From Dactylorhiza incarnata (taxonomy: Eukaryota > Streptophyta > Magnoliopsida > Asparagales > Orchidaceae), in assembly GCA_033032865.1 (NCBI GenBank), contig JAWHQI010000004.1, positions 20,318,001 through 20,382,000 on the forward strand: DNA of 64,000 nucleotides, written 5' to 3'. The position numbers were made by a program, and so were the translations under genes. Of the stretch, positions 9,956 to 51,590 are shown piece by piece. Every line of letters begins with the position of its first letter. Position 1 is the stretch's first letter. Under the pieces are notes generated by a model. That model was not told the DNA's origin, made no database searches, and saw nothing but the letters and a program-made list of their open reading frames with translations.

Positions 9956-9968
9956 CTCAAATTTTCCC

Positions 9969-28120: not shown

Positions 28121-28883
28121 TGTTCGATTCAAAAGTGCGCTTCCGAAGGAAATCGTAGGTTGCGGATTATCGGTTACTATTTGGTTAGAGAATTCAGACC
28201 GCTAGTAGCGGTCGATGCCAGACTTCGCCCGTCTCGGCAAATTCCACTCCTGCGATGGGCTTTCCTTTTATTGAAGAGAAGTGATTACAGCGGGTTACAA
28301 GTGAGCCGGCCGGCTAGACTGGTCGCAAGATCGGAAACTTGAGGCCGCAGCTCCAGCAAGCGAGCTTTCGGATTCGAGTGTGCCTGTCTTGTGAACAGTG
28401 CCGCCCCCTATTTATAGGCTTGGGGGCCTGCCCGAATGGGCAGGGATAGAATAACCACCTGCCCGGGTACAGGAGAAATGGGCAGGCAGTGATGGGATGC
28501 ATAAAAAAAAGAAAAGAAGGAAGTCGCGTGGCCTGGCGGCTTGCCCTTCCGACCCGTTTGACCTGAGGCTGAAGATGTCGTGGCTGAGTCAATGATGTAG
28601 AACGAGCGGCCTCCGGCTTAAGACCACGATCTGCCCTCTGGACGTGACTTTGGCCGATCTTCACGATGCAACCCGGTCGGTCTCCTCCTTGAGATCGCGG
28701 ATAGCCTTCTTGTCTTGTCTTTTGACGATCTTCAATCTTGGGAGCGGTCCGAAATGTCATCAGATCGCCCGGCCTGGTGTGCCCTGAACTGAGAGCCACT
28801 GACCCTGGAACCCAGCGGCCTGACCTAGCAATTCGCCCGGTACGACAATGATCCAATCCGAGAAGCAGTTTTCCGGGTAAACA
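28121..28883 (-). repeat. 3' LTR of element A
   Basis: On the minus strand it starts TGTTTACCCGGAAAAC and ends GAATCGAACA (763 bp). It directly abuts satellite DNA at 28120. Its inner edge is followed by the polypurine tract shared by A, B and C. The part near 28195-28275 is clearly homologous to 38125-38200 in element B (opposite orientation) and to 54350-54430 in element C. Confidence 0.87.
28408..28417 (-). promoter_or_regulatory. TATA box of the element A 3' LTR
   Basis: CTATAAATAG on the minus strand lies in a GC-rich setting. The same setting is at 54568-54577 in C. The motif is nearly palindromic, so orientation is taken from the element. Confidence 0.55.
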
Positions 28884-28900
28884 TAATCCCCGCATATTTT
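28884..28900 (-). other. Polypurine tract of element A
   Basis: On the minus strand the sequence reads AAAATATGCGGGGATTA directly before the LTR start. B (51872-51889) and C (54972-54988) share TGCGGGGATTA at the same place. Confidence 0.8.
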
Positions 28901-28968
28901 CAAATCCCAAGGGAATTTCGAAAATATTAGCTTTAACCGGGAGACCGCTTCCGACTTGCCCTGAATTC

Positions 28969-28974
28969 TATAAG
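28969..28974 (+). promoter_or_regulatory. Possible antisense promoter TATA (gene 1 of element A)
   Basis: TATAAG on the plus strand lies 103 bp before the gene 1 ATG. Element C has TATAAA at 55057-55062, 107 bp before the homologous ATG. Conserved position supports a plus-strand promoter inside the element, next to the LTR. No transcript evidence is available. Confidence 0.45.
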
Positions 28975-29071
28975 AGAGCCAAAGAACTCATTCTGCAGAG
29001 TTTTTTCTGAAATCACGGGGTATTTCTCGCCATTTGCCGTTAGAGCTTTTAAGACCGGTAATTCTTCAACG

Positions 29072-31259
29072 ATGGACTTCCTAGACACCATGTTAGACCG
29101 CGTGGTCCCTGGCGGCGATCAGAAGAAGGAGGAAGGCAAGAGTCGCGAATCAACGGAGAAGTCGAGGAAGGACAAGGAAAAGCAGAACCAGAAAGACCGA
29201 AAAAAGAGAGAGAGGTCTGAGAAAACCGCGGCGGACAGTTCCAAGGCCGATGTGGACTCAGCAATCCCCAAGACTCCTACAGAGACCGCAGCGGAGAGTT
29301 TGGGGCCTTCTCCCAGCGACTCGCTGATTCCTCTCAGAGATCTCGGCCAACAGGTCGTCAGCCCGCTGAACAAAGGGGAGGCCGCCCCTTCTAAAAAAGT
29401 TGGCTCTGGCAGCCCTTTAAAGAAAGTCGGCGGGTCCGACTCATTTGGCATGGAAATCACCCCATCCGGGAATCCTCATTTGTTAGTCAAGGATTTGGGG
29501 GAGGAGGCGGTCAGCTCTCCGAGGCCGGACGACCTGAGTATCCCTTTATCCGTGGACGATTATCCTATCCCCTCCAAAGAAGTCAGTCCAGCTTTGGATA
29601 AGAAAGAGAAGAAGAGAAAGAAGACCGGGTCAGTGACCGAGCGAATAACCAAGAAGGTTAAGAGGCTGGCCTCCAAGGAAAGGGCGGCTTTTAAGAAACC
29701 GGCCGAGTCTCGCCTCCAGACCAACCCGCGACTAAAGGAGGAGCTTGGCTTAACGACTCCCCCACCTGCTGAGGTAAATGATTCGCCGGCTACCCCTGAT
29801 ATGAAAACGGGCGACTGATTCCGGACTCGGCGAGTAGTTTATCATTTAATGGGATCTTTCAGGATATGGATGAGCTGGTGAGGCGAGATAAGCTTCTTGA
29901 CAGCCCGTTGGCTTCAAAGCGAACTGCCCTTGCTTCAGATACCACAGCCCGGCCTGAGGGGACCGCTCAGAAGGAGGCCGAAGATCGAGATGCTGCTACT
30001 CGGGCCGCCCTGGAGGTCGAGGAGCGGGAGGCTGCTACCCGGGACGCCTTGGAGGTTGAGTAGAGAGCGGAGGAACTCGAAGAAGTGCTGAAGACGCGGG
30101 AGGAGGTTCCCCCGGTGATGACCGGGAAGGAGATAATGATGGTGAAGAAGGAGGGGGCAAAACAGGCTTTAAACAAGCCGCTGCGGCCTGATCCTTTTGC
30201 GCCAGGTAAGCGCCCTGCGGATTATAAAGCTGTCCGTTTCTTCATTCCGCGGCCTCGTCAAAATCAATTACTGAACCCGCCGCCAAGCTTTTTCCCCTTA
30301 GCGGCCTGGTCCTCTTCCGATAGGCAGAGTAAGGAGAGACTCTGGCGTGAGCAACAATGGAGGATGGACCCAGAACGGTCTAAGCGGCCTGTGCGCCCAG
30401 GCACTGATCTTATATTTATTCCCACTTTTATACATTATAGCGCTGCATGCTTTTACTTTTCATAACCTCGCGGCTTCTTGCAGACAGCGAGGATCAAATT
30501 GTGAAGCCGGGCGACCTTATGTCCAGCCTACCTCCATTGGTTCCCCTGGTATCGACCTGTGCGACGACTTCGCAAGAAGGGCCGCAACTGTTCGAGCATC
30601 TCGAGGAAGATCTAGCAAATCTGAGGGCTCGTTTGAAGGAGGTGGAAAACCGGGAGGCCGCCACTCGGACCGCTCTGGAGGCCGAGCGAATGGCAAGGAA
30701 GAATGCTGAAGAGGCGCTGAAGGCGCAGATGGAGATCGACAGGAGATCCAGGACCGAGAGGGAGAAGAGCCTGGAGATTCAGCTTGAGGCCGCGCGATCT
30801 GCAGCGGAGGCCGCGCGAGCTGCACTGGAGGCTGAGAAGAAAGCTAAGGTGGCGCAAGTCGCTACTCTGACTGCCCAGCTCAAGAAGGAGAAGAGAGCGT
30901 CTGCCAAGTCCGAGGATGACTCGAGATATTATTAGGATAAATTCCTGCGGTTAACTAGGGAAGTCGCTTCGGGCCGGCGAAGTATGAATGATGGGATGCA
31001 GGTTGCTAGCCGCCCAACTGTTGGGGCGGGCTCAAATCCTCCCCCGGCTCGAGCGGCTGATCCAATGATTGATGAGGCCACTGCAACCCCCCGTATGATC
31101 GCCGCTACGCGGATTGAAAAGGATGTCGGGCGGCTTCATAGCACAATCAACCACATCCATTATCATACCAGCCAGATTTACTCCCTTCTGAACACCACCA
31201 GCGACCAGGTCGCGCGACTGCATAGAGGGGATGTCTCCCCAGAACACCGCCAGCCGTGA
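29072..31259 (+). pseudogene. Antisense gene 1 of element A (charged coiled-coil protein, broken)
   Basis: This gene runs opposite to pol. Its start MDFLD and end (...SDQVARLHRG...RQP) match gene 1 of element C. The N-terminal third is Lys/Glu-rich (KKEKKRKK, ERITKKVKRLASKERAAF). The middle has a conserved block, ADYKAVRFFIPRPRQN with LLNPPPSFFPL (about 30217-30300). An intron-like gap follows, ending TTGCAG near 30483, where the homologous exon restarts in both copies. The remainder is predicted coiled coil (EAERMARKNAEEALKAQME) and ends in a conserved HIHYHTSQIYSLL segment. Lesions are a 1-nt deletion near 29813, TAG at 30061-30063 and TAG at 30933-30935. I do not recognise a known function. 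Extra antisense ORFs between pol and the 3' LTR are known in the Tat lineage. Confidence 0.7.
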
Positions 31260-34365: not shown

Positions 34366-34517
34366 GACCGCTCGGTTTGAAAATTCAGACCGTCCGGTCT
34401 TAATATCACAACTAGGGTAGACGAACACCTGCAACTGTTTTGATAATATTTTCCTCGAATGGTTTGGACAAGAAACCACAAGAGGTGAATGCCTTCCTGT
34501 AGGAAAAATGGAATAAT

Positions 34518-34927
34518 CTACAGGCTCAGATGACCAAATGGGCAGGTGGGCCTTGGCGGCGAACATTGCTTTCCTCAAGTGGTCAAAAGAGCTGTAGGGA
34601 AAAAAGAAAAAATATGTACAGACTCAGATGACCAAGTGGGCAGGTGGGCCTCGGCGGCGAACATTGCTTTCCTCAAGTGGTCATAAGAGCTGTAAGCGAC
34701 TCATCTGCTCTCTTGCCTAGGGTTACAAGCCGAGTTGATCAATTGGGCAGGTGGGCCTCGGCGGCGAACATAGCTTTCCTCAGAGAGATCAACTCAGTTG
34801 TGGGCCCAACTAGGCTCCGTTTCGAGAGTACCTAAGAGTACTCGATGGTCACAGGCTATGATGATCAGTTGGGCAGGCGGGCCTCGGCGGCGAACATTGC
34901 TTTCCTCAGAAAGATCATCAAAGCTGT
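34518..34927 (-). other. Array of four covarying hairpins (element A)
   Basis: The units are 34518-34597, 34617-34694, 34725-34801 and 34851-34927. Each has a loop with TGGGCAGGTGGGCC, GGCGGCGAACATTGC and TTTCCTCA. The loop is enclosed by arms that differ between units but still pair: TGACCA with TGGTCA in units 1 and 2, GAGTTGATC with GATCAACTC in unit 3, TGATGATC with GATCATCA in unit 4. Outer pairs ACAG/CTGT and CTC/GAG extend the stems. The array lies between the convergent 3' ends of antisense gene 2 and pol. Confidence 0.8.
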
Positions 34928-35282
34928 AACTATATCCCTTTCAGGGTACGATAGAGCTGACAATCACCTAGACCTCCCTTGATGCAGGGGTGTGTCAGAT
35001 ATCGGCCGGGATCCAAAGTTCTGAAGATCACCGCAGCGAAATTGGCAAGCTACGACTACATGTGTGCGAAAACTCCCCGCATCACATGGTCTTGGTGGGT
35101 TTTACGCTATGACTACAATCCGAGGGGGTTCGAGCAGAATTTGGCGATATCTCAGAGGTTCAGGGAGTGAGATACGTATATACATATATATTAATAATGC
35201 AGAGCACCATTTGGACAAGGAGAAGTGTTAGTATAGGGTCTTTCATTTAATATCAAGAAATGTAAAGAATGAAAGAGATATT
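34928..35282 (-). other. Conserved segment just downstream of pol (element A)
   Basis: This noncoding stretch is strongly conserved with B (39060-39407) and C (61158-61484). It includes the minus-strand words CGAACCCCCTCGGATTGTAG and GGGGAGTTTTCGCACAC. It follows the pol stop directly and leads into the hairpins, so it is probably part of a functional 3' untranslated region. Confidence 0.6.
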
Positions 35283-36812
35283 TTAAGGATAGTATCGTTT
35301 AAGATCGCCACCGCTCCAGGTGTGTGAGATGTCTTCTCCTTCGCTGGTTTGGAGACGGTAGGCCCCATTCTTTAATACCTCTTTGATAATAAAAGGCCCT
35401 GCCTAGTTGGGATTCAGCTTTCCAACATTACCAGATCTGGCCGCAGCATCTACCTTTTTTAACACCAAATCCCCAACTGCAAACTGCTTTACCCTGATAT
35501 TTTTATCAAAATCTTTTGCCATCCTCTTCTTAACTTCTTCCTGCCTGATTGTTGCCTCGTCCTGAAGCTCTTCGATCAGATCCAGACTATACCTGATGGC
35601 CTCATCATTATATTCTACCCATGCTTCTCCTCCCTCTTTTGCATACACAACTCTTGGAGTGACCACCTCAAACTCTACAGGAACAACAGCCTCCGAGCCA
35701 TGAGATAATTTGAATGGTGTCTCCCCTGTAGCTGAACATGGGGTAGTGTGAAGAGTCCAAAGGATGGAGGGAAGTTGGTCTGCCCAATTTCCTTTTTGAT
35801 TCAAAACTCTTTTCATCAGGAGCTGCTGGATTCGCCTGTTTGCAGCTTCTACTTGACCATTGGTCCTTGGATGATGTACTGAGGCGAACCGAAGATCAAT
35901 TCCAACTTGATCGCAAAAGTTTATCATCTCGGGATTATTGAACTGCGGTCCATTATCAGTGACAATTGCCAGCGGGATTCCGTGTCGGCAGACTATTTCT
36001 CCCCAGATGAAATTTTTGATAATTTGGGTAGTAGTCTTTGCCAATGCTTTTGCCTCAATCCACTTACTGAAGTAGTCGATCATTACTATGATAAAGCGGC
36101 GCTGGCCGCTAGCCATTGGAAATGGTCTGACAAGATCCATCCCCCAAACCGCGAAGGGCCAGGGTGCAGTTATTGACCTAAGCGATTGAGCGGGCAGATG
36201 TTGAAGTGGAGCAAATTTCTGACATTGTACACAGCGCTTGGCAAATGCTTCAGCATCCTTTCTCATAGTTGGCCAGAAATATCCTTGCCGCAGGATCCTT
36301 TTCTCTAAGGTTTTTGCCCCTGAATGGCTACCGCATTCCCCAGAATGAACCTCCTGAAGTATGATCGGGATCTCTTCTTCTGAAACACACCGTGCTGAGG
36401 GAGAAATCAAAGTTTTTCTATACAAAACTCCTGCTATTAAGTAGTAGTAGGCCGCCTTTCTTCTGAATCTACTTTTGTCCTTGATCGATTGATGAAACTC
36501 CCCTCTTGACAGAAATAATTCATAAGGGTCCTTCCAGGAAGGATTCCGATCGATCTGCATGAGCTCCTCTTTCTCTGTGGCCGGATGAAAAAGTTCCGAG
36601 GTCACCCCTCCTGATGGAAGACCAAACTTCGACAACTCGTCTGCCTCTTCATTTTGTGTCCTTGGAATGTGCTCGATGATGAAGGATTTAAATTTCCCGA
36701 TCTCTTCCTTAGTTAGCAATAGATACTTTCTTAGCATCAGTTCTCTTTTTTCGTAGTTCCCTAGAACTTGTGAAGCCATTAGAAGAGAATCAATTTTTAC
36801 ATGAACATGCTC
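35283..36812 (-). pseudogene. pol: Element A pol, C-terminal part: RNase H-like end and integrase
   Basis: Reading down from 36812 the protein gives the end of the second RNase H-like domain (HVHVKIDSLLMASQVLGNYE, IPRTQNEEADELSKFG) and then integrase. The integrase finger is H-S-G-E-C-G-S-H with CVQCQKFA; catalytic motifs are GMDLV, VTDNGPQF and NGQVEAANR. The C-terminus is GEDIS...WSGGDLKR and the stop is at 35283-35285. A TAG at 35403-35405 replaces the Trp codon seen in the homologous place of element C (NPNWAGPF). GMDLVRPFP has Arg where C has Gly. Element B was inserted at 36812. The domain normally joins the cDNA to the host chromosome; this copy is broken. Confidence 0.9.
36808..36812. 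other. Target site duplication of element B, left copy
   Basis: TGCTC precedes the element B 5' LTR and is repeated at 53138-53142. Removing B and one copy rejoins the RNase H-like frame of element A. Confidence 0.93.
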
Positions 36813-36960
36813 TGTTGACCCAGAAATCATTATGTGACCCAGAAATCGGTGATCCTCCACTAGGAGGCCTCTTTTGCTACATTTTTGTAGATTATGCGCC
36901 CGGGAAGGATTAGACCTCACGCAAAGGCTCTTTTTACACCCAAAGTGGTAAGAAGAGGTA

Positions 36961-37377
36961 GCCTCCTCCTTCAAACCGCCCAAGTGGGGCGGCCTCTTCC
37001 TTTAAACCGCGCGGGTAGGCGGCCTCCTCCTTCAGACCGCGCGGCTAGGCGGCCTCCTCCTTCAGACCGCGCGGGTAGGCGGCCTCCTCCTTCAGACCGC
37101 GCGGGTAGGCGGCCTCCTCCTTCAGACCGCGCGGGTAGGCGGCCTCCTCCTTCAGACCGCGCGGGTAGGCGGCCTCCTCCTTCAGACCGCGCGGGTAGGC
37201 GGCCTCCTCCTTCAGACCGCGCGGGTAGGCGGCCTCCTCCTTCAGACCGCGCGGGTAGGCGGCCTCCTCCTTCAGACCGCGCGGGTTGGCAGCCTCCTCC
37301 TTCAGACCGCGCGGGTAGGCGGCCTCCTCCTTCAAACCGCGTGGGTAGGCGGCCTCCTCCTTCAGACCGCGCGGGTG
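36961..37377 (+). repeat. 30-bp minisatellite in U3 of the element B 5' LTR
   Basis: There are about fourteen copies of a 30-bp unit made of GGCCTCCTCCTTCAGACCGC plus GCGGGTAGGC. The first and last copies are diverged. It lies upstream of the TATA box. The unit length is a multiple of three, so long artificial open frames run through it on both strands. Confidence 0.95.
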
Positions 37378-37425
37378 GAACTCCAGTCACCGGCTCACCG
37401 TAGGTGACGACATCGACCCAGAGCC

Positions 37426-37433
37426 TATAAATA
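37426..37433 (+). promoter_or_regulatory. TATA box of the element B 5' LTR
   Basis: TATAAATA in GAGCCTATAAATAGGACC lies between the 30-bp and 13-bp arrays. The 3' LTR copy is at 52481-52488. Confidence 0.7.
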
Positions 37434-37512
37434 GGACCCTCGACCATGAAGACGGGACAGGCAAGCTGGGGGCAAAACCGACGGCTAGAAACAGTCAGAC
37501 CGCACCAAGATG

Positions 37513-38027
37513 CGACCTGTCCGGGCGACCTATCCGGGCGACCTGTCCGGGCGACCTGTCCGGGCGACCTGTCCGGGCGACCTATCCGGGCGACCTGTCC
37601 GGGCGACCTGTCCGGGCGACCTGTCCAGCCGACCTGTCCGGGCGACCTGTCCGGGCGACCTGTCCGGGCGACCTGTCCGGGCGACCTGTCCGGGCGACCT
37701 CAGCGACCTGTCTGGGTGACCTCAGCGACCTGTCCGGGCGACCTGTCCGGGCGACCTGTCCGGGCGACCTGTCCGGGCGACCTGTCCGGGCGACCTGTCC
37801 GGGCGACCTGTCCAGGCGACCTGTCCGGGCGACCTGTTCGGGCGACCTGTCTGGGCGACCTGTCCGGGCGACCTGTCCGGGCGACCTGTCCGGGCGACCT
37901 GTCCGGGCGACCTGTCCGGGCGACCTGTCAGGGTGACCTCAGCGACCTGTCCGGGCGACCTGTCCGGGCGACCTATCCGGGCGACCTGTCCGGGCGACCT
38001 CAGCGACTTGTCCGGGTGACCTCGGCA
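37513..38027 (+). repeat. 13-bp minisatellite downstream of TATA, element B 5' LTR
   Basis: There are about 39 copies of CGACCTGTCCGGG with occasional CAGCGACC interruptions. The same array in the 3' LTR (52568-52835) has only about 20 copies. Confidence 0.93.
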
Positions 38028-38325
38028 AACAGCCAGCGCGGCTTACTCTTTTCTTACCCGCAACTCTGTTGTATTCATTCTATTTTCCATGTACTAAACA
38101 CAATGAGCTGTAATACAGATTATTAAATAAAGGGAAAGCCCGTCGCAGGAGTGGCATTTGCCGCGGCGGGCGAAGTCTGGCCTCGCCGCAAGCTAGCGGC
38201 CCTCTCTTCTTCTCTCTCACTCAGCTCTTCATTTGCGACTCAAGCAACCAGCTGCTCGACCGCTACCCCCTCTCTTTCCTCTGGGATTGAGCGTCGAGGG
38301 AGTGGGAACAATTTCGGATTCAACA

Positions 38326-38884
38326 GAAACACGCAACCTTCAGATAGCGAGTGGTTGATGAACAACAGTTGCGATGAAGATACGAGATTTGGCCTAAAAT
38401 ACGTTCAATTTTAAAATGGCCATAACTTTTGATCCGGGTGTCGGAATTCAGAAATTCAAAGCCCGACGGTTCCCCGTTCAAGCACTTTTTAGCCCCAGAT
38501 TTCAAAAATTTGGCTCCGTTTGAAAGTTATTTCAGTTTTTTCTTTCGACAATTCTTGTTTTCATGGATCATCCGTCAGAAGGCCTCGGGCATCCCTCCGA
38601 TCATCCAGAAACGTGTGTGCAAAACAAAGACATCCATCACCTATTAGCGGAGAACATTCCACTCAAAGGACAAGTGGATTCTCAACTTCATACTGCAACA
38701 ACTACTAACAACAAGCCCTCTAGCAATCACTTGGAACATTTACCGCAACTTGAAGCAGAAGAGCTCTCTATTCCTCACCATGAGTTCTATAAGGTGGGTA
38801 TGAATAATTCTCCATATCAATTTGATGGGCTAACTTTTCTTGCAGGATAATAGCAAGACCCTTCCCATTATCAAACAAATTTGT
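38326..38884 (+). other. Element B leader region of unknown origin
   Basis: No standard primer binding site is recognised after the 5' LTR; the sequence starts GAAACACGCAACC. At 38413-38436 it contains ATGGCCATAACTTTTGATCCGG, matching the start of the satellite monomer. A 95-codon open frame (38563-38850, MDHPSEGLGHPSD...) resembles nothing I know; it could be a gag remnant or chance. It has no Shine-type or splice evidence and is not annotated as a gene. Confidence 0.5.
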
Positions 38885-39062
38885 TGGGAGGTAGTTCCGA
38901 GTCGAACCTCATCCAGCCAGATCAGGTCCCATTGGGAAATTGTCCTAACTGGGCATGCCCATTTATCATCAAGGTGTTAAGAAATGGAACTTATCATCTC
39001 TAGACAAGTGTAGTCAAGTGAGGGTGAAGACATCTTGAAGCGGCGACGATCTCAAAACAGTT
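38885..39062 (+). pseudogene. Relic of integrase C-terminus in element B
   Basis: The nucleotide sequence aligns with the last ~55 codons of pol in A and C. AGCCAGATCAGGT, CTAACTGGGCATGCCCATT, TATCATCAAGGTGTTAAG, GTGAAGACATCTT and GCGACGATCTCAAAA correspond to ARSG, NWAGPF, IIKE, GEDI and GDDLK. It has frameshifts and stops. Everything upstream in gag-pol is gone, so the deletion endpoint lies within this last part of pol. Confidence 0.8.
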
Positions 39063-39407
39063 CTGTCCTTAATGATAATGCTCTCATTTGTTTGCATTTT
39101 GATATCGAATGAAGTGGATACAATACTGACACTCTTCCTTGTGGCTTGTTTGTTCCTTATTATCAAACTCACTGGACCATGGAGACATCGCCAAGTTCTG
39201 CTCGAACCCCCTCGGATTGTAGTCATTAGCGTAAAACCACGAAGATCATGTGTAGCGGGGAGTTTTCGCACACGTGTAGTGGTAGCTTGCCAATTCCCGT
39301 GCGGTGGTCTTCGGAACCTTGGATCCCGGCTGATATCCGACACACCCCTGCATCAAGGGAGGTCTAGGTGAATGTTGGCTCTATCATGCCCCGAGAGGGA
39401 TATAGTT
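39063..39407 (+). other. Post-pol conserved segment in element B
   Basis: Noncoding sequence collinear with 34928-35282 of A (opposite strand) and 61158-61484 of C. It shares GCTCGAACCCCCTCGGATTG, TAGTCATTAGCGTAAAACCA and CACACCCCTGCATCAAGG. It shows the family origin of B. Confidence 0.8.
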
Positions 39408-39827
39408 ACAGCTTTGATGATCTTTCTAAGGAAAGCAATGTCGGTATAGCCTTCGCGGCATAACCACACCTGCCCAACTGATCATCTTAGTCTGTGACCA
39501 TCGAATACTCCTAGGTACTCTCAAGCGATGCCTAAGTGGGACCCACAACTGAGTTGATCTCTCTGAGGAAAGCAATGTTCGCCTTCTAGGACCACCTGCC
39601 CAATTGATCAACTCAGCTTGTAGCCCTAGGAAAGAGAGCAGTTGAGTCGTTTACAGCCCTTATGACCACTTGAGGAAAGCAATGTTCGCCGCCTAGGCCC
39701 ACCTGCCCACTTGGTCATCTGGGTCTGTACTTCCTTTTTCTTTATTTCTACAGCTCTTATGACCACTTGAGGAAAGCAATGTTTGCCGCCTAGGCCCACC
39801 TGCCCACTTGGTCATCTGAGTCTGTAG
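39408..39827 (+). other. Array of four covarying hairpins (element B)
   Basis: The units are 39408-39495, 39545-39621, 39652-39729 and 39748-39827. Inner arms are TGATGATC/GATCATC, GAGTTGATC/GATCAACTC, ATGACCA/TGGTCAT and ATGACCA/TGGTCAT. Outer arms switch between CCC/GGG (unit 3) and CTC/GAG (unit 4). In the element's sense direction the unit order matches element A. Loops keep AGGAAAGCAATG and CACCTGCCCA. Confidence 0.8.
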
Positions 39828-40404
39828 CCATTCCTTTTTCCTTACAGGGAAATTATCTCTCTTATGATCCTCTATCATTTGGAGAAAGTGGTAACTAACA
39901 GGTACAGATATTGGCCCACTTGGTCATTTAAAAGTTGAAACACTTTTAGACCAGGCGGTTTTATCTATCAAGCCGGTCGGTTGAAAGAGTACTACAGGTT
40001 ATGAAAAATGGCTGCATAATATGCTAGCCAAGTGGGTAAAATGTATCTGGCTTTAAAGCTGGAAAGCGGGCTACAACAGGAAGCCAAAAGGCAATATTTC
40101 CGACTCGAGATAATCAAGTCAAGGCTTTCATTCTAATAGTCGGGAATTGGACTTATTGAACCTCTGGGTTGCATTCTAACTGCACGACTCGTTGCTCACG
40201 ATCAGAGCTTATGAAGATATTATCTATGGCAGTTTCAGGCCGCGATTCATCTTCACTGAGGCAATTATTCTTTTAGAGATATCTTTTCCCTGGAAGTTTT
40301 TCAGAAAGGATTTGAAGTTTTATAAAAAATAATGCTAAAAGCAAAAGATCGCATATGAATATCCGCAAGTAAGTAAAATAGAAAAAACTAACAGTTATGA
40401 ATTC
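39828..40404 (+). other. Noncoding spacer of element B before the tandem array
   Basis: No gene is seen. It includes a further partial loop-like word (GGCCCACTTGGTCAT near 39913) and AGACCAGGCGGTTTT, a form of the dispersed ACCGNNCGGT motif. Confidence 0.5.
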
Positions 40405-43400
40405 ATTTATACCTGCTCTTGAGTTCTCTTTTGCTGAGATTAGCAGGTGTTCGCGAGTTCTCTTCAGGTACTCGCGTTATGTTTTATACCTGCTGTGAGT
40501 TCTCTTTTATAGAGATTAGCAGGTGCTCGCGAGGTCTCTTCAGGTACTCGCGTTATATTTTATACCTGCTGTGAGCTCTCTTTTGCAGAAATTAGCAGGT
40601 GATCGCGAGTTCTCTTCAGGTACTCGCGTTATAGATTCTTTTGCCTGCTTTAAGTTCTCTTTTGCAGAGATTAGCAGGTACTCGCGAGGTCTCTTCAGGT
40701 ACTCGCGTTATGTTTTATACCTGCTTTGAGTTCTCTTTTGCAGAGATTAGCAGGAGTTTGCGAGTTCTCTTCAGGTACTCGCGTTATGTTTTATACCTGC
40801 TGTGAGTTCTCTTTTGCAGAGATTAGCAGGTGCTCGCGAGGTCTGTTCAGGTACTCGCGTTATATTATATTTCATACCTGCTTTGAGTTCTCTTATGCAG
40901 AGATTAGCAGGTATTCGCGAGGTCTCTTCAGGCACTCGCGTTATGTTTTATACCTGCTTTGAGTTCTCTTTTGCAGAGATTAGCAGGAGTTCACGAGTTA
41001 TCTTCATGTACTCGCGTTATGTTTTATACCTGCTTTGTGTTCTCTTTTGCAGAGATTAGCAGGTGCTCGCGAGGTCTCTTCAGGTACTCTCGTTATATTT
41101 TATACCTGTTGTGAGTTCTCTTTCGCAGAGATTAGCAGGTATTCGCGAGGTTTCTTCAGGTACTCGCGTTATGTTTTATGCCTGCTTTGAGTTCTCTTTT
41201 GCAGAGATTAGCAGGTACTCGCGAGGTCTCTTCAGGTACTCGCGTTATGTTTTATACCTGCTTTGAGTTCTCTTTTGCAGAGATTAGCATGAGTTCGCGA
41301 GTTCTCTTCAGGTACTCGCGTTATGTTTTATACCTGCTGTGAGTTCTCTTTTGCAGAGATTAGGAGGTGCTCGCGAGGTCTCTTCAGGTACTCGCGTTAT
41401 ATTATATTTCATACCTGCTTTGAGTTCTCTTGTGCAGAGATTAGCAGGTATTCGCGAGGTCTCTTCAGGCACTCGCGTTATGTTTTATACCTGCTTTGAG
41501 ATCTCTTTTGCAGAGATTAGCAGGAGTTCGCGAGTTCTCTTCAGGTACTCGCGTTATGTTTTATACCTGCTGTGAGTTCTCTTTTGCAGAGATTAGGAGG
41601 TGCTCGCGAGGTCTCTTCAGGTACTCGCGTTATATTATATTTCATACCTGCTTTGAGTTCTCTTGTGCAGAGATTAGCAGGTATTCGCGAGGTCTCTTCA
41701 GGCACTCGCGTTATGTTTTATACCTGCTTTGAGATCTCTTTTGCAGAGATTAGCAAGAGTTCGCGAGTTCTCTTCAGGTACTCGCGTTATGTTTTATACC
41801 TGCTTTGAGTTCTCTTTTGCAGAGATTAGCAGGTGCTCGCGAGGTCTCTTCAGGTACTCGAGTTATATTTTATACCTGCTGTGAGTTCTCTTTCGCAGAG
41901 AATAGCAGGTGCTCGTGAGGTCTCTTCAGGTACTCGCGTTATGTTTTATGCCTGCTTTGAGTTCTCTTTTGCAGAGATTAACAGGTGTTCGCGAGGTCTC
42001 TTCAGGTACTCGCGTTATATTATATTTCATACCTGCTTTGAGTTCTCTTGTGCAGAGATTAGCATGTATTCGCGAGGTCTCTTCAGGTACTCGCGTTATG
42101 TTTTATACCTATTGTGAGTTCTCTTTCGCAGAGATTAGCAGGTATTCGCGAGGTTTCTTCAGGTACTCGCGTTATGTTTTATACCTGCTTTGAGTTCTCT
42201 TTTGCAGAGATTAGCAGGTGTTCGCGAGGTCTCTTCAGGTACTCGCGTTATATTTTATACCTGCTGTGAGTTCTCTTTTGCAGAGAATAGCAGGTGCTCG
42301 CGAGGTCTCTTCAGGTACTCGCGTTATATTATATTTCATACCTGCATTGAGTTCTCTTATGCAGAGATTAGCAGGTATTCGCGAGGTCTCTTCAGGTACT
42401 CGCGTTATGTTTTATACCTACATTGAGTTCTTTTTTGCAGAGATTAGCAGGAGTTCGCGAGTTCTCTTCAGGTACTTGCGTTATGTTTTATACCTGCTGT
42501 GAGTTCTCTTTCGCAGAGATTAGCAGGTATTCGCGAGGTTTCTTCAGGTACTCGCGTTATGTTTTATGCCTTCTTTGAGTTCTCTTTTGCAGAGATTAGC
42601 AGGTGTCCGCGAGGTCTCTTCAGGTACTCGCGTTATATTATATTTCATACCTGCTTTGAGTTCTCTTGTGCAGAGATTAGCAGGTATTCGCGAGGTCTCT
42701 TCAGGTACTCGCGTTATGTTTTATACCTGTTGTGAGTTGTCTTTCGCAGAAATTAGCAGGTATTCGCGAGGTTTCTTCAGGTACTCGCGTTATGTTTTAT
42801 ACCTGCTTTGAGTTCTCTTTTGCAGAGATTAGCAGGTGTTCGCGAGGTCTCTTCAGGTACACGTGTTATATTTTATACCTGCTGTGAGTTCTCTTTTGCA
42901 GAGAATAGCAGGTGCCCGCGAGGTCTCTTCAGGTACTCGCGTTATATTTTATACCTGCTGTGAGTTCTCTTTTGCAGAGAATAGCAGGTGCTCGCGAGGT
43001 CTCTTCAGGTACTCGCGTTATATTATATTTCATACCTGCTTTGAGTTCTCTTGTGCAGAGATTAGTAGGTATTCGCGAGGTCTCTTCAGGAACTCGCGTT
43101 ATGTTTTATACCTACTTTGAGTTCTCTTTTGCAGAGATTAGCAGGTGCTCGCGAGGTCTCTTCAGGTACTCGCGTTATGTTTTATACCTGTTGTGTGTTC
43201 TCTTTCGCAAAGATTAGCAGGTATTCGCGAGGTTTCTTCAGGTACTCGTGTTATGTTTTATGCCTCCTTTGAGTTCTCTTTTGCAGAGATTAACAGGTGT
43301 TCGCGAGGTCTCTTCAGGTACTCGCGTTATATTATATTTCATACCTGCTTTGAGTTCTCTTGTGCAGAGATTAGCAGGTATTCGCGAGGTCTCTTCAGGT

Positions 43401-46400
43401 ACTCGCGTTATGTTTTATACCCGTTGTGAGTTCTCTTTCGCAGAGATTAGCAGGTATTCGCGAGGTTTCTTCGGGTACTCGCGTTATGTTTTATACCTTC
43501 TTTGAGTTCTCTTTTGCAGAGATTAGCAGGTGTTCGCGAGGTCTCTTCAGGTACTCGCATTATATTTTATACCTGCTGTGAGTTCTCTTTTGCAGAGAAT
43601 AGCAGGTGCTCGCGAGGTCTCTTCAGGTACTCGCGTTATATTATATTTCATACCTGCTTTGAGTTCTCTTGTGCAGAGATTAGCAGGTATTCGCGAGGTC
43701 TCTTCAGGTACTCGCGTTATGTGTTATACCTGCTTTGAGTCATCTTTTGCAGAGATTAGCAGGAGTTCGCGAGTTCTCTTCAGGTACTTGCGTTATGTTT
43801 TATACCTGCTGTGAGTTCTCTTTCGCAGAGATTAGCAGGTATTCGCGAGGTTTCTTCAGGTACTCGCGTTATGTTTTATGCCTGCTTTGAGTTCTCTTTT
43901 GCAGAGATTAGCAGGTGTTCGCGAGGTCTCTTCAGGTACTCGCGTTATATTATATTTCATACCTGCTTTGAGTTCTCTTGTGCAGAGATTAGCAGGTATT
44001 CACGAGGTCTCTTCAGGTACTCGCGTTATGTTTTATACCTGTTGTGAGTTCTCTTTCGCAGAGATTAGCAGGTATTCGCGAGGTTTCTTCAGGTACTCGC
44101 GTTATCTTTTATACCTGCTTTGAGTTCTCTTTTGCAGAGATTAGCAGGTGTTCGCGAGGTCTCTTCAGGTACACGCGTTATATTTTATACCTGCTGTGAG
44201 TTCTCTTTTGCAAAGAATAGCAGGTGCCCGCGAGGTCTCTTCAGGTACTCGAGTTATATTTTATACCTGCTGTGAGTTCTCTTTTGCAGAGAATAGCAGG
44301 TGCTCGCGAGGTCTCTTCAGGTACTCGCGTTATATTATATTTCATACCTGCTTTGAGTTCTCTTGTGCAGAGATTAGCAGGTATTTGCGAGGTCTCTTCA
44401 GGTACTCGCGTTATGTTTTATACCTGCTTTGAGTTCTCTTTTGCAGAGATTAACAGGTATTCGCGAGGTCTCTTCAGGTACTCGCGTTATGTTTTATACC
44501 TGCTTTGAGTTCTCTTTTGCAGAGATTAGCAGGAGTTCGCGAGTTCTCTTCAGGTACTCGCGTTATATTATATTTCATACCTGCTTTGAGTTCTCTTGTG
44601 CAGAGATTAACAGGTATTCGCGAGGTCTCTTCAGGTACTCGCGTTATGTTTTATACCTGCTTTGTGTTCTCTTTTGCAGAGATTAGCAGGAGTTCGCGAG
44701 TTCTCTTCAGGTACTCGCGTTATGTTTTATACCTGCTGTGAGTTCTCTTTTGCAGGGATTAGCAGGTGCTCGCGAGGTCTCTTCAGGTACTCGCGTTATG
44801 TTTTATACCTGTTGTGAGTTCTCTTTCGCAGAGATTAGCAGGTATTCGCGAGGTTTCTTCAGGTACTCGCGTTATGTTTTATACCTGCTTTGAGTTCTCT
44901 TTTGCAGAGATTAGCAGGTGTTCACGAGGTCTCTTCAGGTACTCGCGTTATATTTTATACCTGCTGTGAGTTCTCTTTTGCAGAGAATAGCAGGTGCTCG
45001 CGAGGTCTCTTCAGGTACTCGCGTTATATTATATTTCATACCTGCTTTGTGTTCTCTTGTGCAGAGATTAGCAGGTATTCACGAGGTCTCTTCAGGTACT
45101 CGCGTTATGTTTTATACCTGCTTTGAGTTCTCTTTTGTAGAGATTAGCAGATATTCGCGAGGTCTCTTCAGGTACTCGCGTTATGTTTTATACCTGCTTT
45201 GAGTTCTCTTTTGTAGAGATTAGCAGGTATTCGCGAGGTCTCTTCAGGTACTCGCATTATGTTTTATACCTGCTTTGAGTTCTCTTTTGCAGAGATTAGC
45301 AGGTATTCGCGAGGTTTCTTCAGGTACTCGCATTATATTACATTTCATACCTGCTTTAAGTTCTCTTTTGCAGAGATTAACAGGAGTTCGCGAGTTCTCT
45401 TCAGGTACTCGCGTTATGTTTTATACCTGCTGTGAGTTCTTTTTTGCAGAGATTGGCAGGTATTCGTGAGGTTTCTTCAGGTACTCGCGTTATATTTTAT
45501 ACCTGCTGTGAGCTCTCTTTTGCAGAAATTAGCAGGTGATCGCGAGTTCTCTTCAGGTACTCGCATTATAGATTCTTTTGCCTGCTTTGAGTTCTCTTTT
45601 GCAGAGATTAGCAGGTATTCGCGAGGTCTCTTCAGGTACTCGCGTTATGTTTTATACCTGCTTTGAGTTCTCTTTTGCAGAGATTAGCAGGTATTCGCGA
45701 GGTCTCTTCAGGTACTCGCGTTATGTTTTATACCTGCTTTGAGTTCACTTTTGCAAAGATTAGCAGGTATTCGCGAGGTTTCTTCAGGTACTCGCGTTAT
45801 ATTATATTTCATACCTGCTTTGAGTTCTCTTGTGCAGAGATTAGCAGGTATTCGCGAGGTCTCTTCAGGTACTCGCGTTATGTTTTATACCTGCTTTGAG
45901 TTCTCTTTTGTAGAGATTAGCAGGAGTTCGCGAGTTCTCTTCAGGTACTTGCGTTATATTTTATACCTGCTGTGAGTTCTCTTTCGCAGAGATTAGCAGG
46001 TATTCGCGAGGTCTCTTCAGGTACTCGTGTTATATTTTATACCTGCTGTGAGTTCTCTTTTGCAGAGAATAGCAGGTGGTCGAGAGGTCTCTTCAGGTAC
46101 TCGCGTTATATTATATTTCATACCTGCTTTGAGTTCTCTTGTGCAGAGATTAGCAGGTATTCGCGAGGTCTCTTCAGGTACTCGCGTTATGTCTTATACC
46201 TGCTTTGAGTTCTCTTTTGCAGAGATTAGCAGGAGTTTGCGAGTTCTCTTCGGGTACTTGCGTTATATTTTATACCTGCTGTGAGTTCTCTTTCGCAGAG
46301 ATTAGCAGGTATTCGCGAGGTTTCTTCAGGTACTCGCGTTATGTTTTATACCTGTTGTGAGTTCTCTTTCGCAGAGATTAGCAGGTATTCGCGAGGTTTC

Positions 46401-49400
46401 TTCAGGTACTCGCGTTATGTTTTATACCTGCTTTGAGTTCTCTTTTGCAGAGATTAGCAGGTGTTCGCGAGGTCTCTTCAGGTACTCGCGTTATATTTTA
46501 TACCTGCTGTGAGTTCTCTTTTGCAGAGAATAGCAGGTGCTCGCGAGGTCTCTTCAGGTACTCGCGTTATATTATATTTCATACCTGCTTTGAGTTCTCT
46601 TATGCAGAGATTAGCAGGTATTCGCGAGGTCTCTTCAGGTACTCGCGTTATGTTTTATACCTGCTTTGAGTTCTCTTTTGCAGAGATTAGCAGGTGTTTG
46701 CGAGGTCTCTTCAGGTACTCGCGTTATCGTTTATACCTGTTGTGAGTTCTCTTTTGCAGAGATTTGCAGTTATTCGCGAGTTCTCTTCAGGTACTCGCGT
46801 TATGTTTTATACCTGCTTTGAGTTATCTTTTGCAGAGATTAGCAGGAGTTCGCGAGTTCTCTTCAGGTACTTGCGTTATGTTTTATACCTGCTGTGAGTT
46901 CTCTTTCGCAGAGATTAGCAGGTATTCGCGAGGTTTCTTCAGGTACTCGCGTTATGTTTTATGCCTGCTTTGAGATCTCTTTTGCAGAGATTAGCAGGTG
47001 TTCGCGAGGTCTCTTCAGGTACTCGCGTTATATTATATTTCATACCTGCTTTGAGTTCTCTTGTGCAGAGATTAGCAGGTATTCACGAGGTCTCTTCAGG
47101 TACTCGCGTTATGTTTTATACCTGTTGTGAGTTCTCTTTCGCAGAGATCAGCAGGTATTCGCGAGGTTTCTTCAGGTACTCGCGTTATGTTTTATACCTG
47201 CTTTGAGTTCTCTTTTGCAGAGATTAGCAGGTGTTCGCGAGGTCTCTTCAGGTACCCGCGTTATATTTTATACCTGCTGTGAGTTCTCTTTTGCAGAGAA
47301 TAGCAGGTGCCCGCGAGGTCTCTTCAGGTACTCGAGTTATATTTTATACCTGCTGTGAGTTCTCTTTTGCAGAGAATAGCAGGTGCTCGCGAGGTCTCTT
47401 CAGGTACTCGCGCTATATTATATTTCATACCTGCTTCGAGTTCTCTTGTGCAGAGATTAGTAGGTATTCGCGAGGTCTCTTCAGGTACTCGCGTTATGTT
47501 TTATACCTGCTTTGAGTTCTCTTTTGCAGAGATTAGCAGGTATTCGCGAGGTTTCTTCAGGTACTCGCGTTATGTTTTATGCCTGCTTTGAGTTCTCTTT
47601 TGCAGAGATTAGCAGGTGTTCGCGAGGTCTCTTCAGGTACTCGCGATATATTATATTTCATACCTGCTTTGAGTTCTCTTGTGCAGAGATTAGCAGGTAT
47701 TCACGAGGTCTCTTCAGGTACTCGCGTTATGTTTTATACCTGTTGTGAGTTCTCTTTCGCAGAGATTAGCAGGTATTCGCGAGGTTTCTTCAGATACTCG
47801 CGTTATGTTTTATACCTGCTTTGAGTTCTCTTTTGCAGAGATTAGCAGGTGTTCGCGAGGTCTCTTCAGGTACACGCGTTATATTTTATACCTGCTGTGA
47901 GTTCTCTTTTGTAGAGAATAGCAGGTGCCCGCGAGGTCTCTTCAGGTACTCGAGTTATATTTTATACCTGCTGTGAGTTCTCTTTTGCAGAGAATAGCAG
48001 GTGCTCGCGAGGTCTCTTCAGGTACTCGCGTTATATTATATTTCATACCTGCTTTGAGTTCTCTTGTGCAGAGATTAGCAGGTATTCGCGAGGTCTCTTC
48101 AGGTACTCGCGTTATGTTTTATACCTGCTTTGAGTTCTCTTTTGCAGAGATTAGCAGGTATTCGCGAGGTCTCTTCAGGTACTCGCGTTATGTTTTATAC
48201 CTGCTTTGAGTTCTCTTTTGCAGAGATTAGCAGGAGTTCGCGAGTTCTCTTCAGGTACTCGCGTTATATTATATTTCATACCTGCTTTGAGTTCTCTTGT
48301 GCAGAGATTAACAGGTATTCGCGAGGTCTCTTCAGGTACTCGCGTTATGTTTTATACCTGCTTTGTGTTCTCTTTTGCAGAGATTAGCAGGAGTTCGCGA
48401 GTTCTCTTCAGGTACTCGTGTTATGTTTTATACCTGCTGTGAGTTCTCTTTTGCAGGGATTAGCAGGTGCTCACGAGGTCTCTTCAGGTACTCGCGTTAT
48501 GTTTTATACCTGTTGTGAGTTCTCTTTCGCAGAGATTAGCAGGTATTCGCGAGGTTTCTTCAGGTACTCGCGTTATGTTTTATACCTGCTTTGAGTTCTC
48601 TTTTGCAGAGATTAGCAGGTGTTCATGAGGTCTCATCAGGTACTCGCGTTATAATTTATACCTGCTGTGAGTTCTCTTTTGCAGAGAATAGCAGGTGCTC
48701 GCGAGGTCTCTTCAGGTACTCGCGTTATATTATATTTCATACCTGCTTTGAGTTCTCTTGTGCAGAGATTAGCAGGTATTCACGAGGTCTCTTCAGGTAC
48801 TCGCGTTATGTTTTATACCTGCTTTGAGTTCTCTTTTGTAGAGATTAGCAGGTATTCGCGAGGTCTCTTCAGGTACTCGCGTTATGTTTTATACCTGCTT
48901 TGAGTTCTCTTTTGCAGAGATTAGCAGGTATTCGCGAGGTCTCTTCAGGTACTCGCGTTATGTTTTATGCCTGCTTTGAGTTCTCTTTTGCAGAGATTAG
49001 CAGGTATTCGCGAGGTTTCTTCAGGTACTCGCATTATATTACATTTCATACCTGCTTTTAGTTCTCTTTTGCAGAGATTAACAGGAGTTCGCGAGTTCTC
49101 TTCAGGTACTCGCGTTATGTTTTATACCTGCTGTGAGTTCTTTTTTGCAGAGATTAGCAGGTATTCGTGAGGTTTCTTCAGGTACTCGCGTTATATTTTA
49201 TACCTGCTGTGAGCTCTCTTTTGCAGAAATTAGCAGGTGATCGCGAGTTCTCTTCAGGTACTCGCATTATAGATTCTTTTGCCTGCTTTGAGTTCTCTTT
49301 TGCAGAGATTAGCAGGTATTCGCGAGGTCTCTTCAGGTACTCGCATTATGTTTTATACCTGCTTTGAGTTCTCTTTTGCAGAGATTAGCAGGTATTCGCG

Positions 49401-51590
49401 AGGTCTCTTCAGGTACTCGCGTTATGTTTTATACCTGCTTTGAGTTCTCTTTTGCAAAGATTAGCAGGTATTCGCGAGGTTTCTTCAGGTACTCGCGTTA
49501 TATTATATTTCATACCTGCTTTGAGTTCTCTTGTGCAGAGATTAGCAGGTATTCGCGAGGTCTCTTCAGGTACTCGCGTTATGTTTTATACCTGCTTTGA
49601 GTTCTCTTTTGCAAAGAATAGCAGGTGCCCGCGAGTTCTCTTCAGGTACTCGCGTTATATTTTATACCTGCTGTGAGTTCTCTTTCGCAGAGATTAGCAG
49701 GTATTCGCGAGGTCTCTTCAGGTACTCGCGTTATATTTTATACCTGCTGTGAGTTCTCTTTTGCAGAGAATAGCAGGTGCTCGCGAGGTCTCTTCAGGTA
49801 CTCGCGTTATATTATATTTCATACCTGCTTTGAGTTCTCTTGTGTAGAGATTAGCAGGTATTCGCGAGGTCTCTTCAGGTACTCGCGTTATGTCTTATAC
49901 CTGCTTTGAGTTCTCTTTTGCAGAGATTAGCAGGAGTTTGCGAGTTCTCTTCAGGTACTTGCGTTATATTTTATACCTGCTGTGAGTTCTCTTTCGCAGA
50001 GATTAGCAGGTATTCGCGAGATTTCTTCAGGTACTCGCATTATGTTTTATACCTGTTGTGAGTTCTCTTTCGCAGAGATTAGCAGGTATTCGCGAGGTTT
50101 CTTCAGGTACTCGCGTTATGTTTTATACCTGCTTTGAGTTCTCTTTTGCAGAGATTAGCAGGTGTTCGCGAGGTCTCTTCAGGTACTCGCGTTATATTTT
50201 ATACCTGCTGTGAGTTCTCTTTTGCAGAGAATAGCAGGTGCTCGCGAGGTCTCTTCAGGTACTCGCATTATATTATATTTCATACCTGCTTTGAGTTCTC
50301 TTGTGCAGAGATTAGCAGGTATTCGCGAGGTCTCTTCAGGTACTCGCGTTATGTTTTATACCTGCTTTGAGTTCTCTTTTGCAGAGATTAGCAGGTGTTT
50401 GCGAGGTCTCTTCAGGTACTCGCGTTATGGTTTATACCTGTTGTGAGTTCTCTTTTGCAGAGATTTGCAGGTATTCGCGAGTTCTCTTCAGGTACTCGCG
50501 TTATGTTTTATACCTGCTTTGAGTTCTCTTTTGCAGAGATTAGTAGGTGTTCGCGAGGTCTCTTCAGGTACTCGCGCTATATTTTATACCTGATGTGAGC
50601 TCTCTTTGGAAGAAATTAGCAGGTGATCGCGAGTTCTCTTTAGGTACTCACGTTATAGATTCTTTTGTCTGCTTTAAGTTCTCTTTTGTAGAGATTTGCA
50701 GGTATTCGCGAGTTCTCTTCAGGTACTTGCGTTATATTTTTTACCTGCTGTGAGTTCTCTTTCGCAGAGATTAGCAGGTATTCGCGAGGTTTCTTCAGGT
50801 ACTCGCGTTATGTTTTATACCTGCTTTGAGTTCTCTTTTGCAGAGATTAGCAGGTGTTCGCGAGGTCTCTTCAGGTACTCGTGTTATGGTTTATACCTGT
50901 TGTGATTTCTCTTTTGCAGAGATTTGCAGGTATTCGCGAGTTCTCTTCAGGTACTCACGTTATATTATATTTCATACCTGCTTTAAGTTTTCTTTTGCAG
51001 AGATTAGCAGGTATTCACGAGGTTTCTTCAGGTACTCGAGTTATATTACATTTCATACCTGCTTTGAGTTCTCTTTTGCAGAGATTAGCAGGTATTCGCG
51101 AGGTTTCTTTAGGTACTCGCGTTATGTTTTATATCTGCTGTGAGTTCTCTTTTGCAGAGATTAGCAGGTGCTCGCGAGGTCTCTTCAGCTACTCGCGTTA
51201 TGTTTTATACCTGCTGTGAGTTCTATTTTGCAGAGATTAGCAGGTGCTCGCGAGGTCTCTTCAGGTACTCGCGTTATGTTTTATACCTGCTTTAAGTTCT
51301 ATTTTCGCAGGGATTAGCAGGTATTCGCGAGGTCTCCTCAGGTACTCGCGTTATGTTTTATACCTGCTTTGAGTTCTCTTTTGCAGAGATTAGCAGGTGC
51401 TCGCGAGGTCTCTTCAGGTACTCGCGTTATGTTTTTTACCTGCTTCGAATTCCCTTTTGTAGAGATTAGCAGGTGCTCGCGAGGTCTCTTCAGGTACTCG
51501 CGTTATGTTTTATACCTGATTTCAGTTTTCTCTTTTGCAGAGGTTAGCAGGTATTCGCGAGTTCTCTTCAGGTACTCGCGACGTTCTTTC
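40405..51590 (+). repeat. ~76-bp tandem array inside element B (about 145 units)
   Basis: The typical unit is TATACCTGCTTTGAGTTCTC, TTTTGCAGAGATTAGCAGGT, ATTCGCGAGGTCTCTTCAGG and TACTCGCGTTATGTTT, about 76 bp. A variant with ATTATATTTCA in place of GTTTTA is about 80 bp. Each unit has two inverted repeats: ACCTGCT...AGCAGGT and CGCGAG...CTCGCG. Variant types recur in a fixed order, and large parts repeat at an offset of 3,701 bp. The regular open frames of 78 and 94 codons follow from the period and do not encode a protein. Confidence 0.95.

What the first reader, a model, noticed from the sequence alone, without database searches (positions are those of the whole stretch)
34518..34927. Four-hairpin array with compensatory stem changes, conserved in three related elements
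In A (34518-34927), B (39408-39827) and C (60696-61157), four units of about 77-90 bp lie just downstream of pol. Each has a conserved loop (GGGCAGGTGGGCC..., AACATTGCTTTCCTCA) closed by arms that differ between units but stay complementary: TGACCA/TGGTCA, GAGTTGATC/GATCAACTC, TGATGATC/GATCATCA. An outer arm changes from CTC/GAG to CCC/GGG with pairing kept. Unit order is the same in A and B. Paired substitutions across twelve units argue for selection on structure. The array lies between convergent 3' ends of pol and antisense gene 2, so a role in 3' end formation, RNA export, packaging or separating the two transcription units is possible. I know of no described element with this pattern.
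Basis: partly seen in the sequence, partly recalled or inferred. Interest (0 to 1): 0.85.

Follow-up and report, generated by a model that had tools for sequence, protein, structure and literature searches.

The report
Covarying hairpin array in Retand retrotransposons
Three related plant jumping genes carry a short run of four hairpins whose stems changed letters in matching pairs, and one of the three, which has lost almost all recognisable genes, kept this run, which suggests a signal the element needs to be copied.

Summary
Twelve units, four per element, fold as imperfect hairpins with a shared 18-pair outer stem. Nine pairs vary on both sides, and each shows a compensatory double change. 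Covariation exceeds a null simulated on the unit tree (0 of 2000) and slid registers; structures predicted from one unit class hold in the others. Most double changes separate unit classes and predate the A/B/C split. The elements are Retand type (Ty3/gypsy, Tat), probably from an orchid: A and C have pol on the minus strand and antisense Transposase_28 frames. The telling case is B, which moved (5-bp target duplication, LTRs 3% different at aligned bases) without recognisable genes beyond a short pol-end remnant. With the parts of A in the window it shares three blocks: R/U5, PPT/LTR start, and 0.95 kb from the pol end through the array. That suggests a cis-acting element and argues against an insulator between convergent genes. 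My best reading is a structured cis element of the genomic RNA, for export or packaging; strand, partner and function are not shown. Tandem repeats at this place are known in Retand; I found no described covarying array in the papers searched. Only this window could be examined.

The parts
34518..34597 (-). Hairpin unit A1 (type 1/2); strand given is pol sense, for all units
   Evidence: Alignment, pair counts, fold
34616..34695 (-). Hairpin unit A2 (type 1/2)
34723..34803 (-). Hairpin unit A3 (type 3)
34849..34929 (-). Hairpin unit A4 (type 4, short apical loop)
39406..39497 (+). Hairpin unit B4 (type 4, long apical loop)
39543..39623 (+). Hairpin unit B3 (type 3)
39651..39730 (+). Hairpin unit B2 (type 1/2, CCC/GGG outer arm)
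39748..39827 (+). Hairpin unit B1 (type 1/2)
60695..60774 (-). Hairpin unit C1 (type 1/2, CCC/GGG outer arm)
60803..60894 (-). Hairpin unit C2 (type 3, long loop)
60929..61020 (-). Hairpin unit C3 (type 3, duplicate)
61066..61157 (-). Hairpin unit C4 (type 4, long loop)
34496..35441 (-). Block of A (end of pol, pol 3' region, array) shared with element B at 38916-39848 (79% identity)
   Evidence: alignment of A, B and C
35403..36812 (-). Element A pol, 3' part: rest of additional RNase H, integrase (the open frame continues to 37001 into the LTR of B)
   Evidence: PF13456, PF17921, PF00665; LTR overlap seen
53138..54303 (-). Element A pol, upstream part: RT, RNase H, start of additional RNase H
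   Evidence: PF00078, PF17919, PF17917, PF13456
31594..33505 (+). Element A antisense frames, Transposase_28 in the first
   Evidence: PF04195 E 1.5e-8
28937..30935 (+). Element A further antisense frames, no Pfam family above its cut-off
57676..59073 (+). Element C antisense frames, Transposase_28 in the first
   Evidence: PF04195 E 4e-7
36813..53137 (+). Element B, nested in the pol gene of A: target duplication TGCTC, LTRs 36813-38325 and 51890-53137 (37 mismatches in 1248 aligned bases, 265 gap columns)
   Evidence: C shows the uninterrupted site
40406..51580 (+). 11-kb array of a 76-bp satellite between the hairpin array and the PPT of B
51849..51903 (+). PPT / 3' LTR start of B, with hairpin, homologous to A 28924-28870
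28870..28924 (-). PPT / 3' LTR start of A, with hairpin

Best explanation
The array is a cis-acting, structured RNA element in the 3' part of the genomic RNA of a Retand retrotransposon family. In the pol-sense transcript units fold into hairpins with a variable but paired arm and a nearly invariant inner segment (pol sense: AGGAAAGC-ATGT ... CCTGCCCA). Four in a row would present repeated copies of one binding surface to a protein, either a host export adaptor (as structured transport elements of mammalian retroelements do) or the element's own Gag or accessory protein, so that unspliced genomic RNA is exported and/or packaged. Elements without genes, such as B, must then carry the signal to be copied in trans. 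Shown here: the pairing, its covariation, conservation of units above the measured spacer, retention in B, and that B has moved. Inferred: that RNA is the active form, that the strand is pol sense, and the export or packaging role.
For: Covariation above a tree-based null and slid registers, and held-out prediction. Conservation at aligned bases: A-C units 80-84%, integrase coding DNA 81%, antisense ORF 69%, DNA upstream of the array 52% with 660 gap columns; A-B units 88-94%; the one spacer measured (39 bases between units 3 and 4) 69% A-B and 59% A-C. B shares with the parts of A in the window only R/U5 (95 columns, 84-85%), PPT/LTR start (55, 82%) and the pol-end-plus-array block (974, 79%), and with C R/U5 and the array block (73%). 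The PPT region folds as a hairpin in A, B and C with different arms. B moved: 5-bp target duplication, uninterrupted site in C, LTRs 37 mismatches in 1248. Folding whole arrays, the pol-sense RNA forms all four unit hairpins in A (mean pair probability 0.96-0.99) and B (0.86-1.00), while the other strand loses A1, A2, B1 and B4 (0.33-0.37).
Against: No RNA, protein or expression data. Three elements from one window; the genome search did not complete. Strand unsettled: shuffle-corrected stability is similar (z -2.51 and -3.10, paired test p 0.05); in the 18-pair stem there are 7 G-U and 6 A-C cells; with 300 bases of flank the B units fold on both strands. Units C2 and C3 do not form their own hairpins in the whole-array fold on either strand. 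Ranked by covariation score among 1136 column pairs, only 3 of the 9 variable stem pairs are in the top 25. Most compensations are old and may be few events. B could have inherited the block without using it. The 5' leader, gag and protease of A and C are not in the window, so B's possible sharing of those, and a usual 5' packaging signal, could not be tested.
Confidence: 0.5

Rival explanations
1. The arms are kept complementary mainly by mutation: template switching between the two arms during DNA replication or reverse transcription rewrites one arm as the reverse complement of the other, so several compensatory changes arise in one event. The array is then an ordinary tandem repeat with palindromic units.
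For: Published mechanism (PMC8794818, abstract and opening text seen). Unit classes differ by several changes at once: B1 to B3 has kept double changes at columns 11, 15, 18 and 22 plus 3'-arm changes at 80, 87, 88 and 96. Tandem repeats here are common in Retand (PMC11963269).
Against: Isolated single-pair double changes occur (14/90 in units 1 and 2, 9/94 in unit 4). A bulge (column 12) and mismatched pairs persist in the arms. It does not by itself explain unit conservation or retention in B.
Confidence: 0.2
2. The array acts on DNA or chromatin: a cluster of binding sites for a sequence-specific protein, for example the Transposase_28 protein of the antisense ORF, which would regulate or de-silence the element.
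For: GGGCAGG occurs 21 times in the window (expected 4.85, largest of 100 shuffles 14): 12 in the units, 4 and 3 in the LTR stretches upstream of a TATA-like box in A and C, 2 elsewhere. Transposase_28 was predicted to bind DNA (PMC11963269, section 11 part 1). Stability is similar on both strands.
Against: No GGGCAGG in the LTRs of B, yet B keeps the array. A plain binding-site cluster does not need arms that diverge while staying complementary. No antisense-ORF similarity was found in B.
Confidence: 0.15
3. 3' end formation or insulation between convergent transcripts of pol and the antisense ORFs.
For: Position between convergent frames in A and C; hairpins can fold in both transcripts.
Against: In B no convergent genes were recognised, and the array is kept. 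Genomic RNA has to read through this region to reach the 3' LTR (general knowledge).
Confidence: 0.1

Closest known systems
[quoted passage not shown]
   Same: Same place in the same lineage; family-specific tandem units; about half of recently active Retand elements have arrays there, of unknown origin and function
   Different: That paper has 0 hits for hairpin, secondary structure or inverted repeat in its main text; here the units form paired stems with compensatory changes and persist in an element without recognisable genes
Structured RNA transport elements of retroelements: musD MTE (passages of PMC5767303); MPMV CTE and IAP RTE (recalled, from no call)
   Same: Structured cis RNA of an LTR retroelement that uses host export machinery
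   Different: Different sequence and fold, plant host, four similar units; no export test here, and no Rfam match
Packaging/dimerisation hairpins (Ty1 5' region and retroviral RNA; listing and abstract starts)
   Same: Hairpins in genomic RNA that mediate its use as a genome
   Different: The Ty1 domain listed is at the 5' terminus; the array is downstream of pol
LTR elements without genes that keep cis signals (TRIM/LARD type, recalled)
   Same: B keeps LTR edges and PPT and has no recognisable gene beyond a pol-end remnant
   Different: B also keeps a 0.95-kb internal block with the array and carries an 11-kb satellite
[quoted passage not shown] 2006, not seen)
   Same: Plant tandem repeats said to have hairpin-like structure
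   Different: Described there as genomic tandem repeats; whether they relate to Retand arrays was not checked

Membership tests
Retand lineage (Ty3/gypsy, Tat) | Order RT, RNase H, additional RNase H, integrase (PMC6317226 passages: shared by Ogre and Retand) | tested here: met
   Element A minus strand: RVT_1 and RT_RNaseH at 53560-54303, RT_RNaseH end then RVT_3 at 53044-53556, RVT_3, Integrase_H2C2, rve at 35406-37001. B not testable: no pol beyond a remnant
Retand lineage (Ty3/gypsy, Tat) | Antisense ORF with Transposase_28 between pol and the 3' LTR (PMC11963269) | tested here: met
   PF04195 in A (E 1.5e-8) and C (E 4e-7), antisense to pol. Not found in B
Retand lineage (Ty3/gypsy, Tat) | Placement by reverse transcriptase phylogeny | not tested
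   No tree was built; best protein matches are from Platanthera zijinensis, 61-72% identity
Retand lineage (Ty3/gypsy, Tat) | Target site duplication of 4 or 5 bp, by lineage | tested here: inconclusive
   TGCTC on both sides of B. The passage seen says 4 or 5 bp by lineage without naming Retand's. Ends of A and C not available
Retroelement RNA transport element (CTE/RTE/MTE type) | Conserved secondary structure in the genomic RNA | tested here: inconclusive
   Structure met; strand and presence in genomic RNA not shown
Retroelement RNA transport element (CTE/RTE/MTE type) | Promotes nuclear export of unspliced RNA | not testable with these tools
   Needs a reporter assay
Retroelement RNA transport element (CTE/RTE/MTE type) | Match to a described RNA family | tested here: not met
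   cmscan of the whole window against Rfam 15: 0 matches at gathering scores; so it is not filed as a member, only as possibly working like one
[quoted passage not shown]
   Four units each in A, B and C

The most novel reading that the evidence does not exclude
A new kind of plant retroelement cis-RNA: an array of four hairpins with nearly invariant inner surfaces and drifting but paired arms that acts as the recognition signal for export or packaging of Retand genomic RNA, and that partners without genes must carry to be mobilised.
Probability: 0.35. Interest if true: 0.75.

Novelty: new variant of a known kind. Interest (0 to 1): 0.55.

Why it matters
The tandem repeats in the long pol-3' LTR region of Retand elements are described as of unknown origin and function (PMC11963269, discussion). 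A covarying array that a mobile element without recognisable genes retains gives a concrete, testable candidate for what part of that region does, and a handle on how autonomous plant retrotransposons recognise partners they copy in trans.

Tried and rejected
Own genome: 18 tries of the genome search failed with 'busy or cannot be reached', so no genome-wide family was tested. Public collections: the exact core pattern gave 0 in viral contigs and 1 stretch in genome contigs, an archaeal MAG whose flanks show no unit arms by eye, taken as chance. A protein search with a translated frame of the array gave 16 candidates, none at E 10 or better. Rfam at gathering scores: nothing; so a known ribozyme is not supported.

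Strand: raw energies favour the antisense-ORF strand in 11 of 12 units, but shuffle-corrected scores do not, so I dropped it. 21 pairs gave 19 G-U against 8 A-C cells; without the three outermost, poorly kept pairs it is 7 against 6, so I dropped that too.

Limits: the 18-pair structure was chosen on the same 12 units (hence); the null is a simplified simulation of my own, not R-scape; the ranking left out gapped columns; the units are related. BLAST compared 36829-40405 and 51581-53137 of B with A from 28121 and with C from 54304; the satellite and 16 bases at the LTR start were left out. Protein check of B: tblastn of 14 window frames and 4 Platanthera proteins (hits at the frame ends of A's pol are its overlap with B's LTR; the one other place is the pol-end remnant at 38944-39009); Pfam on 9 of 16 frames of 75 aa or more in B's left part, no family at E 0.01. 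No Retand gag was available as a query.

Full report
What the region is. The window holds satellite DNA and nested LTR retrotransposons. Element D (gag-pol frame 12085-17349; LTRs 9301-11862 and 18721-21282, 99.7%) lies in a 180-bp satellite. Elements A and C are Retand type: pol on the minus strand with RT, RNase H, additional RNase H and integrase (tested in A), and antisense frames with Transposase_28 on the plus strand. Of 720 proteins matching the integrase-side frame, the best six of the 120 listed are from the orchid Platanthera zijinensis (61-72% identity; the others listed 35-51%), so an orchid source is likely (inference). Element B (36813-53137) is inserted in A's pol with a 5-bp target duplication; C shows the uninterrupted site; its LTRs differ at 37 of 1248 aligned bases, with 265 gap columns.

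The array. A, B and C carry four units each, downstream of the pol end; antisense frames follow in A and C, an 11-kb 76-bp satellite in B. A strict core pattern finds 11 units and none in 100 shuffles; A3 has one core mismatch. A covariance model trained on the twelve finds these and 5 weak opposite-strand hits to units, up to E 10. The units fall into three classes by position: 1/2, 3 and 4 (tree). Apical loops come in a short and a long form that do not follow the arm classes (A4 has the short loop on type 4 arms, B4 and C4 the long one), so loops and arms have been reshuffled (inference).

Is the pairing real? An 18-pair outer stem is paired in 84.7% of 216 cells, against 24-40% in slid registers. 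Nine of the 18 pairs vary on both sides, and each has at least one double change with pairing kept. Letter shuffles: 0 of 500 reach the paired cells, doubly changed cells or covariation score, 3 of 500 the number of doubly changed pairs; the number of pair types is ordinary (420 of 500). Columns simulated independently on the unit tree: summed G 74.4 vs 25.5 +/- 9.7 (0 of 2000), covariation 0.58 vs 0.19 +/- 0.07 (0 of 2000), double-change pairs 9 vs 3.35 (1 of 2000), paired cells 88 vs 64.9 (4 of 2000). Against this: among 1136 ungapped column pairs ranked by covariation score, only 3 of the nine are in the top 25; I read this as class-specific columns correlating in general, so the signal is in pairing more than in correlation. 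Held-out tests: structure from type 1/2 pairs 89 of 105 cells in the other units (slid 19-48 of 105); from type 3, 118 of 152 (slid 29-66 of 147-152); from type 4, 130 of 162 (slid 42-78 of 149-162).

Age of the changes. Of 13 contrasts, the 10 between same-class units show full double changes with pairing kept only at columns 14/90 (A2-B2, A1-C1, B1-C1) and 9/94 (B4-C4); the 3 between classes hold 2 to 4 kept double changes each. So the compensations are mostly old and few in number of events. Template switching could have made several at once (PMC8794818, abstract and opening text).

Conservation (aligned bases). A-C: units 80-84%, integrase coding DNA 81.4%, antisense ORF 69%, DNA upstream of the array 52% with 660 gap columns, spacer between units 3 and 4 59% (23 of 39). 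A-B: units 88-94%, that spacer 69% (27 of 39). The stretch between the array and the end of A's pol frame is 74-78% identical among the three; part of it is coding in C, whose pol frame runs 40 residues further than A's.

Element B. BLAST of B (satellite left out) against A at E 1e-3 gives three kinds of place: R/U5 (once per LTR), the PPT/LTR start, and 38916-39848 against 35441-34496; the other rows are unit-to-unit echoes. Against C, R/U5 and the array block are found, the PPT block not at that cut-off, though its sequence is alike by eye. tblastn finds no antisense-ORF or RT similarity in B, only a remnant of about 23 residues of the pol end at 38944-39009; 9 of its frames have no Pfam family at E 0.01. 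Gag, protease and 5' leader of A and C are not in the window, so only the parts from RT onward were compared. In a mobile element without genes, retained parts are expected to be cis signals; PPT and R/U5 are such, and the array block is the third. The PPT region folds as a hairpin with differing arms in A, B and C; in B it lies in the lowest-z window of the 773 scanned (z -6.7, 40 shuffles).

Which strand? Undecided. Mean z -2.51 (antisense-ORF sense) and -3.10 (pol sense). The 18-pair stem has 7 G-U and 6 A-C cells. Consensus folds exist on both strands (-19.8 with 23 pairs; -15.1 with 18 pairs). Folding whole arrays favours pol sense for independent hairpins in A and B; with 300 bases of flank B folds on both strands; C2 and C3 form no hairpin of their own on either, and in the minimum-energy folds they enter long-range pairs, which I read as pairing between duplicates.

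Literature. PMC11963269 (abstract, section 11 part 1 and discussion read) reports tandem arrays between pol and the 3' LTR in about half of recently active Retand elements, and antisense Transposase_28 ORFs in 97% of clusters; its main text has no hairpin, secondary structure or inverted repeat. PMC7264820, PMC6317226 and PMC5767303 were seen as passages. Six papers hold both Retand and hairpin; the hairpin passages of all six were seen. Five concern probes, Helitrons, target sites or silencing; [quoted passage not shown] 2006, which I have not seen. Listings for transport elements (7 papers), for hairpin/compensatory/tandem repeats (2) and for packaging signals (4) show no such element in titles and abstract starts. 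Satellites that grew out of retrotransposon arrays are described (PMC7004042, abstract), which fits the 76-bp array in B.

Verdict. Real structure with covariation in a known kind of place; best read as a cis-acting RNA element of the retrotransposon, probability about 0.5; a new variant of a known kind. Mechanism, strand and partner are inference.

Noticed in passing
40406-51580: An 11-kb array of about 145 copies of a 76-bp satellite lies inside element B between the hairpin array and its PPT, consistent with satellites growing out of retrotransposon 3' regions.
   Followed up: partly
51835-51895, 28868-28935, 54963-55032: The PPT / LTR-start region of B, A and C folds into a hairpin whose 3' arm adjoins the PPT; arms differ between elements but stay paired.
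   Followed up: partly
28427-28486 and 54587-54646: GGGCAGG, invariant in the hairpin units, also occurs 4 times in the LTR of A (two inverted pairs) and 3 times in that of C (one inverted pair and a single), upstream of a TATA-like box; none in the LTRs of B.
   Followed up: partly
38107-38199, 52919-53011, 28199-28291, 54339-54433: An R/U5 block of about 95 bp is shared between the LTRs of B and those of A and C; apart from the LTR start, no other LTR similarity was found at E 1e-3.
   Followed up: partly
34935-35402: The stretch between the array and the end of A's pol frame is 74-78% identical in A, B and C, also beyond the part that is coding in C; its role is unknown.
   Followed up: no
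38524-38900: B's 5' internal part has an open frame of 108 aa (no Pfam match) followed by intron-like GT...AG signals by eye, without similarity to A or C; it may be captured sequence.
   Followed up: partly
9301-21282: A second gypsy element with 99.7% identical LTRs and an open 1754-aa gag-pol frame, inserted in a 180-bp satellite.
   Followed up: no
36961-38000 and 52020-52834: The LTRs of B carry tandem arrays of 30-bp units (13.8 copies in both) and 13-bp units (38.5 versus 21.5 copies).
   Followed up: no
36813-37001 and 53041-53137: The open frames of A's broken pol run on into the LTRs of B on both sides of the insertion.
   Followed up: no
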